In this document: piece by piece, positions 10,112-36,192 of the stretch
How the letters are laid out: each line of letters starts with the position of its first letter
How positions within the stretch are numbered: position 1 is the stretch's first letter
Source: Bacillus gaemokensis
GTDB taxonomy: Bacteria; Bacillota; Bacilli; Bacillales; Bacillaceae_G
Assembly: GCF_001590835.1 (NCBI RefSeq)
Contig: NZ_LTAQ01000011.1
Coordinates: forward strand, 1-64,000
Length of the DNA stretch: 64,000 nucleotides
Direction of reading: 5' to 3'
Notes under the pieces: generated by a model
What the model saw: only the letters and a program-made list of their open reading frames with translations
Database searches by the model: none
What the model was told of the DNA's origin: nothing
Translations under genes and position numbers: made by a program

Positions 10112-11341
10112 TTAATTCATTTGTACCAGTGGCTCAATTTTTGCCATAAACGATTGATGAAGTGCTTCTACACCATTTACTAAATGTAGACGATCAATAA
10201 CAACAGATACTTTAATTTCAGATGTACTTACCATTTTAATATGAATATTTTCTTCTTTTAATGTAGAGAACATATTAGCAGCAACACCTGGATTGGATAC
10301 CATACCAGATCCTACAATAGATACTTTAGCTAGATGATTTTCATATTCTACAGATTCATAGTGAAGTAATTCTTGATTTTGTTCTAATACTTCTAATGTT
10401 TCTCTTAAATCATTGGAATGAATAGAGAAGGATAGATGTACAGTACCTTCATTTGTAATGCTTTGAATAATAATATCGACATTAATATGAGCAGTAGCTA
10501 ATGTAGAGAAAATAGTTGAAAGAGATCCTTGTTCTAATCCTTTAATTGTTACACGTGTAATATTATCTTCAAATGCAATACCTTTTACGATTGATTGTTG
10601 TTCCATGCTACATTCTCCCCTTACAATTGTTCCGTTTTCTTGTTCCATACTTGAACGAACTTCTAAAACGACGTTATGATTTTTGGCGAATTCAACGGCG
10701 CGTGGATGCAATACACCAGCACCTAGATTTGCGAGCTCTAACATTTCATCATAAGAAATTTCATCTAATTTATAAGCGTCTTTCACAACGCGTGGATCAG
10801 TCGTGTAAACACCTGTTACGTCTGTGTAAATATCACATTTTTTTGCTTGAAGCGCAGCAGCTAATGCAACAGCAGTTGTATCAGAACCACCGCGGCCTAG
10901 CGTTGTAATTTCATTTTCTTCACTTAATCCTTGGAAACCAGCGACAATGACAATAGTTCCTTCTTGTAAATGTGATTGAATACGTGCTGTGTTAATATCA
11001 GTAATCCGTGCACTACTATGTACAGATTCTGTCGTAATACCAGCTTGCCAACCTGTTAGCGAAATGGCATCATATCCTTTTGTTTGCAGTGCCATTGTTA
11101 ATAAAGAAATAGTTACTTGTTCACCCGTTGTTAAAAGCATATCCATTTCACGTTTACTTGGATTGTCTGTAATCGCAGTAGCGAGAGCAACAAGTTCATC
11201 TGTACTTTTTCCCATTGCCGAAACGACAGTGACAACGCTATGTCCTCGTTCATATTCTTCAATAATTAAATCTGCTACATGTTGAATGCGCTGGATACTT
11301 CCGACAGAAGTACCGCCAAATTTTTGAACAATCGTTTCCAT
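10112..11341 (-). CDS. lysC: Lysine-sensitive aspartokinase (alpha subunit, with internal beta start)
   Basis: A 409-residue aspartate kinase, the first step of the lysine/threonine/methionine/diaminopimelate pathway. It has the kinase motif KFGGTSVG at residues 7-14, GRGGSDTTA (149-157), and two ACT domains in the last 150 residues. Length matches Bacillus subtilis LysC (about 408). The lysine riboswitch upstream supports lysC over the other aspartokinase paralogues. An internal ATG at codon 246 has its own AGGGGAG site, as expected for the separately translated beta subunit known in B. subtilis. The enzyme is cytosolic. It is transcribed alone. Confidence 0.93.
   Translation of the reverse strand: METIVQKFGGTSVGSIQRIQHVADLIIEEYERGHSVVTVVSAMGKSTDELVALATAITDNPSKREMDMLLTTGEQVTISLLTMALQTKGYDAISLTGWQAGITTESVHSSARITDINTARIQSHLQEGTIVIVAGFQGLSEENEITTLGRGGSDTTAVALAAALQAKKCDIYTDVTGVYTTDPRVVKDAYKLDEISYDEMLELANLGAGVLHPRAVEFAKNHNVVLEVRSSMEQENGTIVRGECSMEQQSIVKGIAFEDNITRVTIKGLEQGSLSTIFSTLATAHINVDIIIQSITNEGTVHLSFSIHSNDLRETLEVLEQNQELLHYESVEYENHLAKVSIVGSGMVSNPGVAANMFSTLKEENIHIKMVSTSEIKVSVVIDRLHLVNGVEALHQSFMAKIEPLVQMN
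10604..10622 (-). promoter_or_regulatory. Internal ribosome binding site and start for the aspartokinase beta subunit
   Basis: Within lysC, AAGGGGAG lies 8 bases before an in-frame ATG at 10604-10606 (Met246, MEQQSIVKG). This would give a product of about 164 residues consisting of the ACT domains. B. subtilis LysC is known to have such an alpha2/beta2 arrangement from nested starts; here the sequence supports the same. Confidence 0.7.
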
Positions 11342-11533: not shown

Positions 11534-11579
11534 AAAACCGCCAAAAAAGGAATATCATATAAAGCATGATATCTCTTTT
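11534..11579 (-). terminator. Riboswitch expression-platform terminator
   Basis: On the minus strand GATATCAT and ATGATATTC pair with A- and T-runs extending the stem, then GGCGGTTTTTTT. It sits directly after the 3' strand of the aptamer P1 helix, as expected for a lysine-dependent terminator. Confidence 0.65.
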
Positions 11580-11582
11580 TTG

Positions 11583-11765
11583 TAGATAGCTCTTCATATG
11601 TACACGTCTGTACATATGACAGTTCTGTTTCTATTCGAAAACAGCCCCAATTAATAAATGCAGAGAAATTTATTAATTTCGGCAACACTTCCTTTTTTCT
11701 AAATTCATCGACATCTCTTTGTCTCCTTTAGAATACTTATAAGCGCTGCAACCTCTATCTCACGT
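11583..11765 (-). promoter_or_regulatory. Lysine riboswitch (L box)
   Basis: On the minus strand the leader carries the L-box signatures in order: GTGAGATAGAGGTTGCAG, an AAGTA element, GGAAGTGTTGCCGAA, TTGGGGCTG and AACTGTCA. The first and last parts close through GATAG/CTATC as P1. The position upstream of an aspartokinase and the downstream terminator fit lysine-dependent premature termination. Confidence 0.88.
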
Positions 11766-27394: not shown

Positions 27395-27423
27395 TTGACA
27401 CTATTTTTATTGTGTGATAAAAA
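27395..27423 (+). promoter_or_regulatory. Promoter of the T-box transcript
   Basis: TTGACA (27395-27400), a 17-base spacer and TAAAAA (27418-27423). The T-box leader starts a short distance downstream. Confidence 0.65.
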
Positions 27424-27451
27424 TGATAGTAATCAATTCGGAAAACATATA

Positions 27452-27871
27452 GTTGGGCAATGAAAGGGTAAAGTAGTGAGAATCTCCCTATATCAGAGAG
27501 CTGGTGGTTGGTGCGAATCAGTATATAGATTATTCATGAAGTTCGTCCTGGAGCATCTTTCATAAATCTCATTGTGAGGAAATGAAAGACGGTAGTGTAT
27601 ACCGTTATCAAATAAAGTGGTGAAGAATTTTTTCATAACTAGGGTGGTACCGCGATATATATCGTCCCTACGTTTTTACGTAGGGGCGTTTTTTATTTAG
27701 GGATTAGCCTTGTTGTATCTTCATAACTAGGGTGGTACCGCGATATTTTATCGTCCCTACGTTTTTACGTAGGGACGTTTTTTATTTAGGTGGTTTCTTA
27801 GTATTCTTCACAACTAGGGTGGTACCGCGATGTTTTAATCGTCCCTACGTCTTCGTAGGGGCGGTTTTTTA
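27452..27871 (+). promoter_or_regulatory. T-box riboswitch, Phe specifier, with three antiterminator/terminator modules
   Basis: Stem I shows AGAGAGCTGGTGGTTGGTGC and the specifier side TGAAG-TTC-GTCCTGGAGCATC. Aligned with the Ile leaders in this window (TGAAG-ATC-ACCTCGGAGCATC), the specifier is TTC at 27542-27544, a Phe codon. The T-box AGGGTGGTACCGCGA then occurs three times, each followed by its own terminator, before the symporter gene. Uncharged tRNA-Phe should stabilise the antiterminators and switch on the transporter. Confidence 0.88.
27629..27871 (+). repeat. Three tandem copies (about 87-88 bp) of the T-box antiterminator/terminator module
   Basis: T-box cores lie at 27641-27655, 27729-27743 and 27816-27830, and terminators CGTCCCTACG...CGTAGGG(G/A)CGTTTTTT at 27663-27697, 27752-27787 and 27840-27871. 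The flanking CATAACTAGGG or CACAACTAGGG is also repeated. The unit repeats at 88 and 87 bases, so it arose by duplication of the 3' half of the leader without Stem I. Confidence 0.92.
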
Positions 27872-27972
27872 TTTCTGAAAGGAAGTGGTTGTATTAGAAA
27901 GGAAAGCGGATAGAACAATATGAGTAAGGTTGAAATGAAAAGAAAAAATAGAAGAAGAGAGGAGATAGAAAG

Positions 27973-29310
27973 ATGAATTCACAGCAATGGACATCGAAAT
28001 TAGGTTTCGTTTTAGCAGCAGCAGGATCAGCTATTGGCCTTGGGGCGATTTGGAAGTTCCCATACATGGCTGGTGTTGGAGGGGGAGGGGCTTTCTTCCT
28101 GATTTTCATCGGTTTCACATTATTAATTGGTTTGCCTTTATTATTAGCTGAATTTGTAATTGGAAGAAGTACACAAAAAGAAGCTGTTGATGCATATAGA
28201 GAAATCGCTCCTAACACATTGTGGCCGTGGGTTGGGAAATTAGGAATTGTAACATGTTTCATATTACTTTCTTTCTACAGCGTTATCGGTGGTTGGATTT
28301 TATTATATTTATGGAATGCAATTACAGGTAGACTATGGGAAGGGAATGGTGCATATGAAGCAACATTTGGTGAAATTATTTCTAATCCATATTTAGCAGT
28401 TGGATCACAGTTATTATTTATTCTTATTACTATTTTTATTGTAAGTAAAGGAGTACAAAACGGTGTTGAAAAAGTAAATAAATATTTTATGCCAGCACTA
28501 TTTGTTCTATTCTTTGTATTAATTGTTCGTGCGCTCACATTAGATGGAGCAGGAGAAGGGGTTCGTTTCTTCCTACAACCTAATTTTTCAGCTGTAAAGT
28601 CTACGGATATTCTATATGCGATGGGACAATCGTTCTTCTCATTATCTGTCGGTGTAGCAGTAATGGCAACATACAGCTCATACTTACCAAAAGAAGAAAG
28701 TTTACCACGTTCGGCATTTTCTATTGTTGGTTTAACACTTGTTATTACATTGCTTGCTGGACTTGCAATTTTCCCAGTTGTATTCGCATTTGGGATGAAA
28801 CCAGATCAAGGACCAGGATTACTATTTGTCGTATTACCGGCGGTCTTCAGTAAAATGGCATTTGGAAAACTATTTTTCGTTATTTTCTTATTACTATTCT
28901 TCTTTGCCACTGTAACATCAGCAATTTCTATGTTAGAAATTAGCGTTGCTTCTTTAACGAAGAACGGTACAAAGAAACGTGAAAAAATGGCTTTAATTAT
29001 TGGTTTGTTAATCTTTGTTGTTGGGATTCCGTCAGCATTGTCATATGGTGTGTTAAGCGATATGAAACTATTTGGAAAAACAGTTTTTGATCTAGCAGAC
29101 TTCGCAGTAAGTAACGTTCTTATGCCGCTTGGCGTATTATTAGTTGCGATCTTCGTTCCATTAAAAATGAAGAAAGATGTATTAATGAAAGAACTTGGAG
29201 TAAGTAAAAACAAAGGCTATAAATTATTTGTATTATGGCTATTCTTGCTTCGCTATATAGCACCGATTGCAATTATTATCGTGTTTTTAAATGTAATTGG
29301 AATTATTTAA
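27973..29310 (+). CDS. Sodium:neurotransmitter symporter (SNF) family transporter
   Basis: A 445-residue LeuT-fold permease with 11-12 helices. Helix 1 carries the SNF hallmark [20 protein letters not shown] (residues about 10-29) with the Na+/substrate unwound segment, followed by the Gly-rich [13 protein letters not shown] proteins import amino acids with Na+. The Phe-specific T-box leader suggests phenylalanine or a related aromatic amino acid as substrate (inference). GAGGAG precedes the ATG. Confidence 0.9.
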
Positions 29311-34531: not shown

Positions 34532-34589
34532 ACGTGTAACAACTAAAAGTTAATTAAGAATTTTCTAACTTTAATATTTTTTATATGCA

Positions 34590-34876
34590 AAGAAGAGGAA
34601 AGTAGATGATTAGGAAAGTTTCAGAGAGCTGCCCCGTGGCTGTGAGGGTGGTAACAATCGAATCATTGAAGATCACCTCGGAGCATCGCTTGCGAACGGG
34701 AAACCAAGTAGAGAGCGGCGGAATCGTCTCCGGTAAAAAGACGGGGGTCTGATAGGACCTATAGAGCTTATATTTCGTGAGAAGTATAAGGAAGCTGAGT
34801 GGTACCGCGAAACTCTCGCCTCAGCAATCAAAGCTACAATGGTGTAGTGATTGATTGCTGAGGCGAGAGTTTTTAT
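34590..34876 (+). promoter_or_regulatory. T-box riboswitch 1, Ile (ATC specifier)
   Basis: Signatures in order: AAAGTAGATGA, AGAGAGCTGCCCCGTGGCTG, GGTGGTAACA, specifier TGAAG-ATC-ACCTCGGAGC (ATC at 34672-34674), and T-box GAGTGGTACCGCGA ending at 34810. A terminator follows, CTCTCGCCTCAGCAATC ... TTGCTGAGGCGAGAGTTTTT at 34811-34876. Uncharged tRNA-Ile should allow read-through. Confidence 0.92.
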
Positions 34877-34901
34877 TTTAGAAAATAGAATAGAAGAAAG
34901 C

Positions 34902-35194
34902 AAAGAAGAGGAAAGTAGACGATACAAATTGTTTCAGAGAGCTACCCCGTGGCTGTGAGGGTGGTAACAATTATATCGATTGAAGATCACCTCAGAGTAC
35001 TACTCACGAAAGGAAACAAGTAGGGGGTAGCGGAGTTGTTCCCGGTAGAAGAACAAAAGTCTAATTCGGACTTACAGAGCTTATATTTCGCGAGAAGTAT
35101 AAGGAAGCTGAGTGGTACCACGATTCCCTCGTCTCAGCAATGGATTGCTACAAGTTTGTAGAAAATCGATTGTTGAGACGGGTATGTTTTTAAG
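34902..35194 (+). promoter_or_regulatory. T-box riboswitch 2, Ile (ATC specifier), in tandem with the first
   Basis: A second full leader with AGAGAGCTACCCCGTGGCTG, specifier TGAAG-ATC-ACCTCAGAG (ATC at 34986-34988) and T-box GAGTGGTACCACGA near 35110-35123. Its terminator, CGTCTCAGCAATGGATTG ... AATCGATTGTTGAGACGGG at about 35126-35194, is less perfect and its T-run is short. Two complete Ile T-boxes in series should tighten control of the ilv operon. Confidence 0.9.
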
Positions 35195-35292: not shown

Positions 35293-36192
35293 ATGGGAAA
35301 CCAGTATATCTATATGAATGGGGAATTAGTGGAGAAAGAAAAGGCGGTCGTTTCAGTATATGATCATGGATTTCTATATGGGGACGGTGTATTTGAAGGG
35401 ATTCGTAGTTACGGTGGAAATGTATTTTGTTTGAAAGAGCACTTAAAGCGTTTATATGAATCTGCTAAATCAATTTTACTAACGATTCCAATGACGGTGG
35501 AAGAGATGGAAAAAGCAGTTTTACAGACATTGCAAAAAAATGAATATGCAGATGCTTATATTAGATTAATTGTTTCAAGAGGGAAAGGGGACTTAGGGCT
35601 TGATCCGAGAAGTTGTGCAAATCCAAGTGTCATCATTATTGCGGAACAGTTAAAGTTATTCCCGCAAGAATTTTATGATAACGGTCTTAGTGTTGTATCA
35701 GTTGCCTCAAGGCGTAATATGCCAGATGCGCTTGATCCACGTATTAAATCAATGAACTATTTGAACAATGTATTGGTAAAAATTGAAGCAGCACAGGCAG
35801 GTGTGCTAGAAGCACTTATGTTAAACCAGCAAGGTTATGTTTGTGAAGGATCAGGAGATAATGTATTCGTTGTGAAAGACGGGAAAGTAGTAACACCTCC
35901 TGCCTATTTAGGGGCATTAGAAGGAATTACACGAAATAGCGTTATTGAACTTTGTGAGCGATTAGGTATTTCATGCGAAGAAAGACCATTTACTCGCCAC
36001 GACGTATATGTGGCAGATGAAGTTTTCTTAACGGGTACAGCAGCTGAATTAATTCCAGTAGTAAAAGTAGATTCGAGGGAGATTGGGACTGGAAAGCCAG
36101 GAGAAGTAACCAAACAGTTAACAGAGGAGTTCAAAAAATTAACTAGAGAGCGAGGGGTACGTGTTCCAGGATTAGCAGAAAGCTTAGCTTAA
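35293..36192 (+). CDS. ilvE: Branched-chain amino acid aminotransferase
   Basis: A 299-residue fold-type IV PLP aminotransferase; last step of Ile, Leu and Val synthesis. VYDHGFLYGDGVFEGIR (about residues 23-39), PLP Lys in RIKSMNYLNNVL (about Lys155) and GSGDNVFVV are typical. The start MGNQYIYMNGELV fits the family. First gene of the ilvE-B-N-C-D-A operon, 98 bases after the second T-box leader. GAGGAGCGATG precedes the start. Confidence 0.95.
   Translation: MGNQYIYMNGELVEKEKAVVSVYDHGFLYGDGVFEGIRSYGGNVFCLKEHLKRLYESAKSILLTIPMTVEEMEKAVLQTLQKNEYADAYIRLIVSRGKGDLGLDPRSCANPSVIIIAEQLKLFPQEFYDNGLSVVSVASRRNMPDALDPRIKSMNYLNNVLVKIEAAQAGVLEALMLNQQGYVCEGSGDNVFVVKDGKVVTPPAYLGALEGITRNSVIELCERLGISCEERPFTRHDVYVADEVFLTGTAAELIPVVKVDSREIGTGKPGEVTKQLTEEFKKLTRERGVRVPGLAESLA

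What the first reader, a model, noticed from the sequence alone, without database searches (positions are those of the whole stretch)
27452..27871. Phe T-box with one Stem I followed by three complete antiterminator/terminator modules
Seen: one specifier stem (TTC at 27542-27544), then T-box cores at 27641, 27729 and 27816, each with its own near-identical terminator, at a period of 87-88 bases. Known: a T-box normally has one such module, and tandem whole leaders are the usual way to multiply it. Inference: three terminators in series behind one tRNA-reading stem would either need three tRNA acceptor-end contacts or give very tight shut-off with graded read-through. The three modules are nearly identical, so duplication is recent or kept by conversion.
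Basis: partly seen in the sequence, partly recalled or inferred. Interest (0 to 1): 0.82.

Follow-up and report, generated by a model that had tools for sequence, protein, structure and literature searches.

The report
One tRNA sensor, three terminator switches
A bacterial RNA switch that senses phenylalanine shortage through one tRNA-reading stem is followed by three stop/go modules instead of one; this partial-repeat design is a known but mechanistically unexplained kind of T-box, and related leaders carry two to five copies of the module.

Summary
One complete T-box (27451-27672, specifier TTC 27542-27544) is followed by three antiterminator/terminator modules with cores at 27641, 27729 and 27816 (period 88, 87). 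The linkers are too short for another Stem I. The gene behind it is a sodium-dependent transporter.

The kind is known: a review names 'partially tandem T-boxes' of unknown mode of action, and I recall a 2008 paper on T-boxes with duplicated terminator-antiterminator elements (not held).

Added here: (1) this leader is a module array of varying copy number in 11 related leaders: 2, 3 or 4 intact copies, in three leaders plus one decayed last copy. (2) In diverged two-module leaders the second antiterminator helix covaries and its core stays intact, so extra modules look selected as switches. (3) In this array, folding predicts that once module 1 opens, its freed terminator arm can capture the next terminator's 5' arm (10 of 10 leaders tested). 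Order-swapped controls do the same, and 61 other leaders show no directional selection for it.

Best reading: serial tRNA-dependent checkpoints behind one sensor, giving a tight OFF state. Which tRNA end contacts modules 2 and 3 is untested.

The parts
27395..27424 (+). promoter-like site (TTGACA, 18 nt, AAAAAT), possible start of the leader
   Evidence: one site found where shuffles give 2.5, so no better than chance; position is plausible
27451..27672 (+). complete T-box leader (Stem I through antiterminator 1)
   Evidence: RF00230, 153.5 bits, model 1-219
27495..27516 (+). Stem I apical tRNA-elbow motifs AGAGA (27495-27499) and TGCGA (27512-27516, fits UGxRA)
   Evidence: read; motif definitions from PMC7583486 passages
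27542..27544 (+). specifier codon TTC (Phe)
   Evidence: and alignment; TTC follows CATGAAG or CATGAAT in all 11 related leaders
27620..27636 (+). Stem III hairpin; its 3' side begins the repeated unit
   Evidence: repeat unit starts at 27632
27641..27669 (+). antiterminator 1 (core 27641-27654, bulge TGGT 27645-27648)
27663..27688 (+). terminator 1, followed by T run 27689-27694
   Evidence: hairpin -18.5 kcal/mol
27729..27758 (+). antiterminator 2 (core 27729-27742)
27752..27777 (+). terminator 2, followed by T run 27778-27783
   Evidence: -19.1 kcal/mol
27816..27846 (+). antiterminator 3 (core 27816-27829)
27837..27866 (+). terminator 3, with T run
   Evidence: -20.3 kcal/mol
27632..27874 (+). 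tandem array of modules, period 87
27973..29310 (+). regulated gene: sodium-dependent (NSS family) amino-acid transporter, 445 aa
   Evidence: NF037979 124.9 bits; best solved relative 4us3, E 1e-109 (I recall this entry as MhsT)

Best explanation
This is a phenylalanine T-box with a partially tandem architecture: one tRNA-reading Stem I serves three antiterminator/terminator switches in series. In Phe sufficiency the charged tRNA cannot stabilise the antiterminators, and three strong terminators in a row give a very low OFF level. In Phe starvation the uncharged tRNA-Phe anchored on Stem I pairs its ACCA end with the UGGU bulge of module 1 and RNA polymerase passes terminator 1. Modules 2 and 3 then act as further checkpoints that need their own antiterminator to form. 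The likeliest route (inferred) is that the same anchored tRNA moves on, since terminator 1 may close behind the polymerase without effect and bring module 2 near the tRNA end. The result is a serial AND of identical tests: sharper and tighter control of a Phe transporter. Shown here: anatomy, copy-number variation, covariation of the second antiterminator in other two-module leaders. Inferred: tRNA hand-over, kinetics, physiological purpose.
For: Single Stem I and three intact modules. 11 related leaders hold 39 modules: 36 have a perfect core and a strong terminator; the 3 decayed ones are each the last copy and all 3 lost the strong terminator, 2 of 3 also mutated the core; none keeps a strong terminator behind a broken core. 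In 65 leaders (this family counted once) module 2 pairs its A2 positions in 59 and 47 of 65 against shuffle means 36.2 and 32.5 (0 of 2000 shuffles reach them); the next position inward, a control, shows none (19 of 65, mean 22.3); A-C at the R-Y pair is 0 of 65; A1 variants AGAG/CTCT and TGGG/CCCA occur as pairs. Collapsed to 20 clusters it holds (18 of 20 at each; 0 and 34 of 5000 shuffles). The acceptor-pairing base agrees between modules 1 and 2 in 63 of 65 and 19 of 20 clusters. Of 100 T-box matches taken from seven genomes chosen for carrying the pattern, 20 have a second core with 0-1 mismatch and none has 2.
Against: No experiment. In the looser list, 10 of 58 leaders differ at the acceptor-pairing base between modules 1 and 2 (several Lactobacillales), which does not fit both modules reading one tRNA end. 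Cores were selected by pattern. In one search, 3-mismatch seconds were 6 against 2 in the control stretch, and 4 of the 20 doubles lacked a strong hairpin at one terminator by my detection. Shuffles do not remove relatedness. With antiterminator 1 locked, the model does not form antiterminator 2 in this leader; the terminator-1 3' arm takes its strand instead.
Confidence: 0.5

Rival explanations
1. Relay: only module 1 senses tRNA. When antiterminator 1 forms, the 3' arm of terminator 1 is free and pairs with the 5' arm of terminator 2 as it emerges, blocking terminator 2; the 3' arm of terminator 2 then blocks terminator 3. One tRNA decision opens all three terminators, so the OFF state is multiplied without multiplying the ON cost.
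For: With antiterminator 1 locked and RNA ending in the terminator-2 loop, C27755 pairs G27685 of the terminator-1 arm with probability 1.0. Capture is predicted in 10 of 10 leaders of this family tested. Arms are near-identical across modules.
Against: Order-swapped modules do it as well (10 of 10 here; 38 of 61 swapped against 35 of 61 real in diverged leaders; 37% of 400 chimeras), and forward and reverse arm pairing are equally strong (22 against 23 of 61), so no directional selection. Once terminator 2 is complete its hairpin holds only part (0.37), but with RNA through terminator 3 it is back at 0.99, so the relay would have to be kinetic. It does not explain the selected second antiterminators.
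Confidence: 0.25
2. Extra terminators only: modules 2 and 3 are leaky back-up terminators that lower basal transcription and respond weakly or not at all to tRNA.
For: Strong terminators at all three modules; simple and physically safe.
Against: Would not require intact antiterminator cores and covarying A2 helices in second modules; in this family no strong terminator stands behind a broken core (only 3 decayed modules).
Confidence: 0.12
3. Neutral repeat dynamics: the module grows and shrinks by slippage or unequal recombination and copies are tolerated because each carries its own off-switch for the terminator; number has no function.
For: Copy number 2 to 5 in 11 related leaders, last copies decaying, linkers more alike within than between leaders (0.895 against 0.831), identical neighbours in G757; a large insertion is tolerated in G403 (core spacing 222 instead of about 89).
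Against: In this window linkers have diverged to 78% while cores and arms stay intact; two-module leaders keep intact second cores in distant groups.
Confidence: 0.13

Closest known systems
Partially tandem T-boxes (T-boxes with duplicated terminator-antiterminator elements)
   Same: One Stem I followed by more than one antiterminator/terminator module. [quoted passage not shown] I recall the abstract of Vitreschak et al. 2008 (not held) describing this structural class.
   Different: Three modules here, up to five in relatives, with copy number varying between related leaders. Whether three or more copies are in print I could not establish: searches showed no such report, but most papers are not held.
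Fully tandem T-boxes (for example the pair at 34581-35139 of this window)
   Same: Several T-box decisions in series on one leader; two uncharged tRNAs are thought to be needed for contiguous T-boxes (PMC12452182, passages).
   Different: There each unit has its own Stem I; here Stem I is single.
Phe T-box of the B. cereus group NSS transporter (Wels et al. 2008, PMC2494555)
   Same: A Phe T-box before an NSS transporter in B. anthracis Ames is listed and derived from the tyrS Tyr T-box (section 19 read); this window very likely shows that leader or a close orthologue (inference).
   Different: The section read and the passages do not mention repeated modules.
Pseudo-cooperative tandem riboswitches (PMC9481103)
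   Same: Serial expression platforms make the response steeper (passages only).
   Different: In the passages seen, tandem arrangements repeat the aptamer; one sensor with several platforms was not among them.

Membership tests
T-box leader (RF00230) | Whole-model match above the gathering score | tested here: met
   153.5 bits against 93, model 1-219
T-box leader (RF00230) | Specifier codon matching the regulated amino acid | tested here: met
   TTC at 27542-27544 in the aligned position; gene is an NSS transporter; substrate Phe not tested
T-box leader (RF00230) | UGGN bulge matching the tRNA discriminator base | tested here: inconclusive
   TGGT in all three modules, which suits A73; that tRNA-Phe has A73 is recalled, not tested
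T-box leader (RF00230) | Response to uncharged tRNA | not testable with these tools
   needs transcription assays
Partially tandem T-box | One Stem I and two or more antiterminator/terminator modules | tested here: met
Partially tandem T-box | Extra modules conserved as switches | tested here: met
   second-module A2 covariation and intact cores in other leaders; for the third module only presence in the relatives of this leader and in L039
Fully tandem T-box | A Stem I before each module | tested here: not met
   about 35-40 nt between a terminator and the next core; Rfam finds no second Stem I

The most novel reading that the evidence does not exclude
The array is an expandable, single-input attenuator: one tRNA-binding event at module 1 is passed down a chain of terminators by strand capture (or the anchored tRNA steps from module to module as a proofreading ratchet). 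The OFF state scales with copy number, and evolution tunes dynamic range by adding or losing 87-nt modules.
Probability: 0.25. Interest if true: 0.75.

Novelty: new member of a known kind. Interest (0 to 1): 0.45.

Why it matters
A review names the mode of action of partially tandem T-boxes as open. A family of related leaders with 2, 3, 4 and decayed fifth modules behind one sensor is a natural copy-number series, so serial tRNA checkpoints, strand-capture relay and plain back-up termination can be told apart directly by counting stops at each terminator. If copy number sets dynamic range, it is a simple evolutionary and engineering knob for RNA switches.

Tried and rejected
A Stem I before each core: rejected. 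Chance repeats: rejected. Relay as the general mechanism of multi-module T-boxes: not supported, since forward and reverse pairing are equal and swapped controls do as well; kept as a rival for this array. A plasmid home for the leader: no match. A search of the window's own genome was impossible (none held). No genome near-identical to the window turned up in the groups searched, so conservation inside the B. cereus group was not tested. The pattern scan stopped at 120 stretches and holds many chance hits in high-GC genomes: 55 clusters in 53 of the 120 stretches had a T run after each core, and at least one of them (L083, Winogradskyella) looks false. Tallies are pattern matches not checked one by one and include the seed genome; one search used a narrower pattern (T only at the acceptor-pairing base). 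Rows dropped before counts: 43 of 103 clusters without T runs, then 2 duplicates (58 left), 9 of 10 leaders of this family (65 of 74 used), and leaders with other A1 sequences were not matched at all; weakest of 104 matches in seven genomes, and the 28 of G728 were not fetched. A notebook line says 38 modules with 35 intact; recounted it is 39 with 36 intact.

Full report
WHAT IS THERE. The leader at 27451-27672 is a complete T-box (RF00230, 153.5 bits) with a TTC specifier at 27542-27544, the apical motifs AGAGA and TGCGA, and Stem III at 27620-27636. Three cores follow at 27641, 27729 and 27816, each with an antiterminator that can form and a strong terminator with a T run. The repeated unit starts in the 3' side of Stem III and ends before the next core (27632-27874, period 87). 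Only about 35-40 nt separate a terminator from the next core, so there is no room for another Stem I, and Rfam sees none. The next gene, 27973-29310, is a sodium-dependent transporter of the NSS family (best solved relative 4us3, which I recall as MhsT).

RELATIVES. Ten related leaders before an orthologous transporter were found: P. alvei, P. albiflavus, a Lysinibacillus sp. (G403), five further genomes of the Lysinibacillus family, one more of the P. alvei family, and G277. Leader identity to the window is 85-91% (P. albiflavus came from the pattern scan and has no such figure). With the window, intact module counts are 2 (P. albiflavus), 3 (window, P. alvei, G545, G277), 4 (G728, G745, G757), 3 plus a decayed fourth (G750, G747) and 4 plus a decayed fifth (G403, which also has core spacing 222 between copies 3 and 4). 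The distribution is patchy: 2 of 295 genomes in the family of P. alvei and 6 of 261 in that of Lysinibacillus, seeds included, which suggests transfer of leader plus gene (inference). Transporter homologues at 64-67% identity in G277 and three other genomes of its family have single-core leaders, 4 of 4. A Tyr-specifier, single-module leader in G378, before what looks like tyrS (recalled N-terminus), is a more distant match, in line with the published view that this Phe T-box came from the tyrS T-box (PMC2494555 section 19).

HOW COMMON. Pattern matches for two close cores were found in 3 of 397 genomes of the order around B. infantis (narrower pattern), 18 of 41 in an Alicyclobacillus family and 10 of 61 in the order of L039. 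The reversed control pattern gave none in these searches. A scan of the genome collection stopped at 120 stretches, of which 53 carry clusters with T runs after each core.

ARE EXTRA MODULES REAL SWITCHES? Among 100 T-box matches from seven genomes that carry the pattern, 20 have a second core with 0-1 mismatch 62-128 nt downstream and none has 2; the 3-mismatch class is 6 against 2 in a control stretch, the 4-mismatch class 12 against 14. The control stretch also holds 6 perfect cores, which I take to be neighbouring T-boxes. Both terminators are strong in 16 of the 20 by my detection. In 65 leaders, module 2 pairs its variable A2 positions in 59 and 47 of 65 (shuffle means 36.2 and 32.5, none of 2000 reaching), while the next position inward does not exceed shuffles; module 1 behaves alike (53 and 43 of 65). 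Within leaders, modules 1 and 2 differ by changes on both sides of an A2 pair in 21 of 130 comparisons. After collapse to 20 clusters the signal stays (18 of 20 at both positions; 34 and 0 of 5000 shuffles). Because the 5' side of A2 is not part of the terminator, this is selection on the antiterminator itself. Against a simple same-tRNA reading: 10 of 58 leaders in the looser list differ between modules at the acceptor-pairing base, although 63 of 65 agree under the stricter filter.

HOW IT WORKS. Best reading: serial tRNA-dependent checkpoints (0.5). In this family 36 of 39 modules are intact; the 3 decayed ones are the last copies, and all 3 lost the strong terminator, as expected if a terminator without a working antiterminator is harmful; three cases are few. 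The main rival is a strand-capture relay. With antiterminator 1 locked and RNA ending in the terminator-2 loop, the terminator-1 3' arm holds the terminator-2 5' arm with probability 1.0; after terminator 2 is complete the three-way balance is 0.18 capture, 0.37 terminator 2 and 0.39 another pairing; with RNA through terminator 3 the terminator-2 hairpin is back at 0.99. Capture is predicted in 10 of 10 family leaders tested, but also in 10 of 10 with modules swapped, and in 35 of 61 diverged leaders against 38 of 61 swapped and 37% of 400 chimeras; arm energies show no direction (22 against 23 of 61). So the relay is possible here, if kinetic, and not a selected general feature.

DUPLICATION. 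Linkers are more alike within a leader (0.895) than at the same position in other leaders (0.831), while module bodies are alike everywhere (0.920 against 0.931): turnover by slippage or recombination plus selection on the body. In this window linkers are down to 0.78, so its copies are not especially recent.

KNOWN OR NEW. Partially tandem T-boxes are known and their mode of action is stated to be unknown (PMC7583486 section 18). I recall the abstract of Vitreschak et al. 2008 naming a class with duplicated terminator-antiterminator elements (paper not held). No held paper surfaced that reports three or more modules behind one Stem I (searches; listings, plus passages of eight papers). I therefore file it as a new member of a known kind, with copy-number variation as the added feature.

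Noticed in passing
34581-34826 and 34894-35139: Two complete T-boxes in tandem (99.4 and 94.9 bits) before branched-chain amino-acid genes (my reading of the ORFs at 35293 and 36217): the whole-leader way of multiplying a T-box, 7 kb from the partial way.
   Followed up: partly
11579-11765, minus strand: Lysine riboswitch (132.6 bits) before an aspartokinase-like ORF at 10112-11341.
   Followed up: partly
L154 (G403), between modules 3 and 4: Core spacing 222 instead of about 89: an insertion with palindromic stretches inside the linker, module 4 still intact behind it.
   Followed up: no
L001, L005, L029, L076, L094 (Clostridium): Two-module leaders whose first terminator is weak or odd by my detection (-2.0 to -6.9 kcal/mol); the first module may work by another hairpin.
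   Followed up: no
L003, L010, L045, L055, L092, L096, L098, L101, L108, L111: Two-module leaders whose acceptor-pairing base differs between module 1 and module 2; unexplained if both read the same tRNA end.
   Followed up: no
L039: A three-module T-box in a Veillonellaceae genome before a gene that looks like an ABC amino-acid binding protein; unrelated in sequence to the window leader.
   Followed up: no
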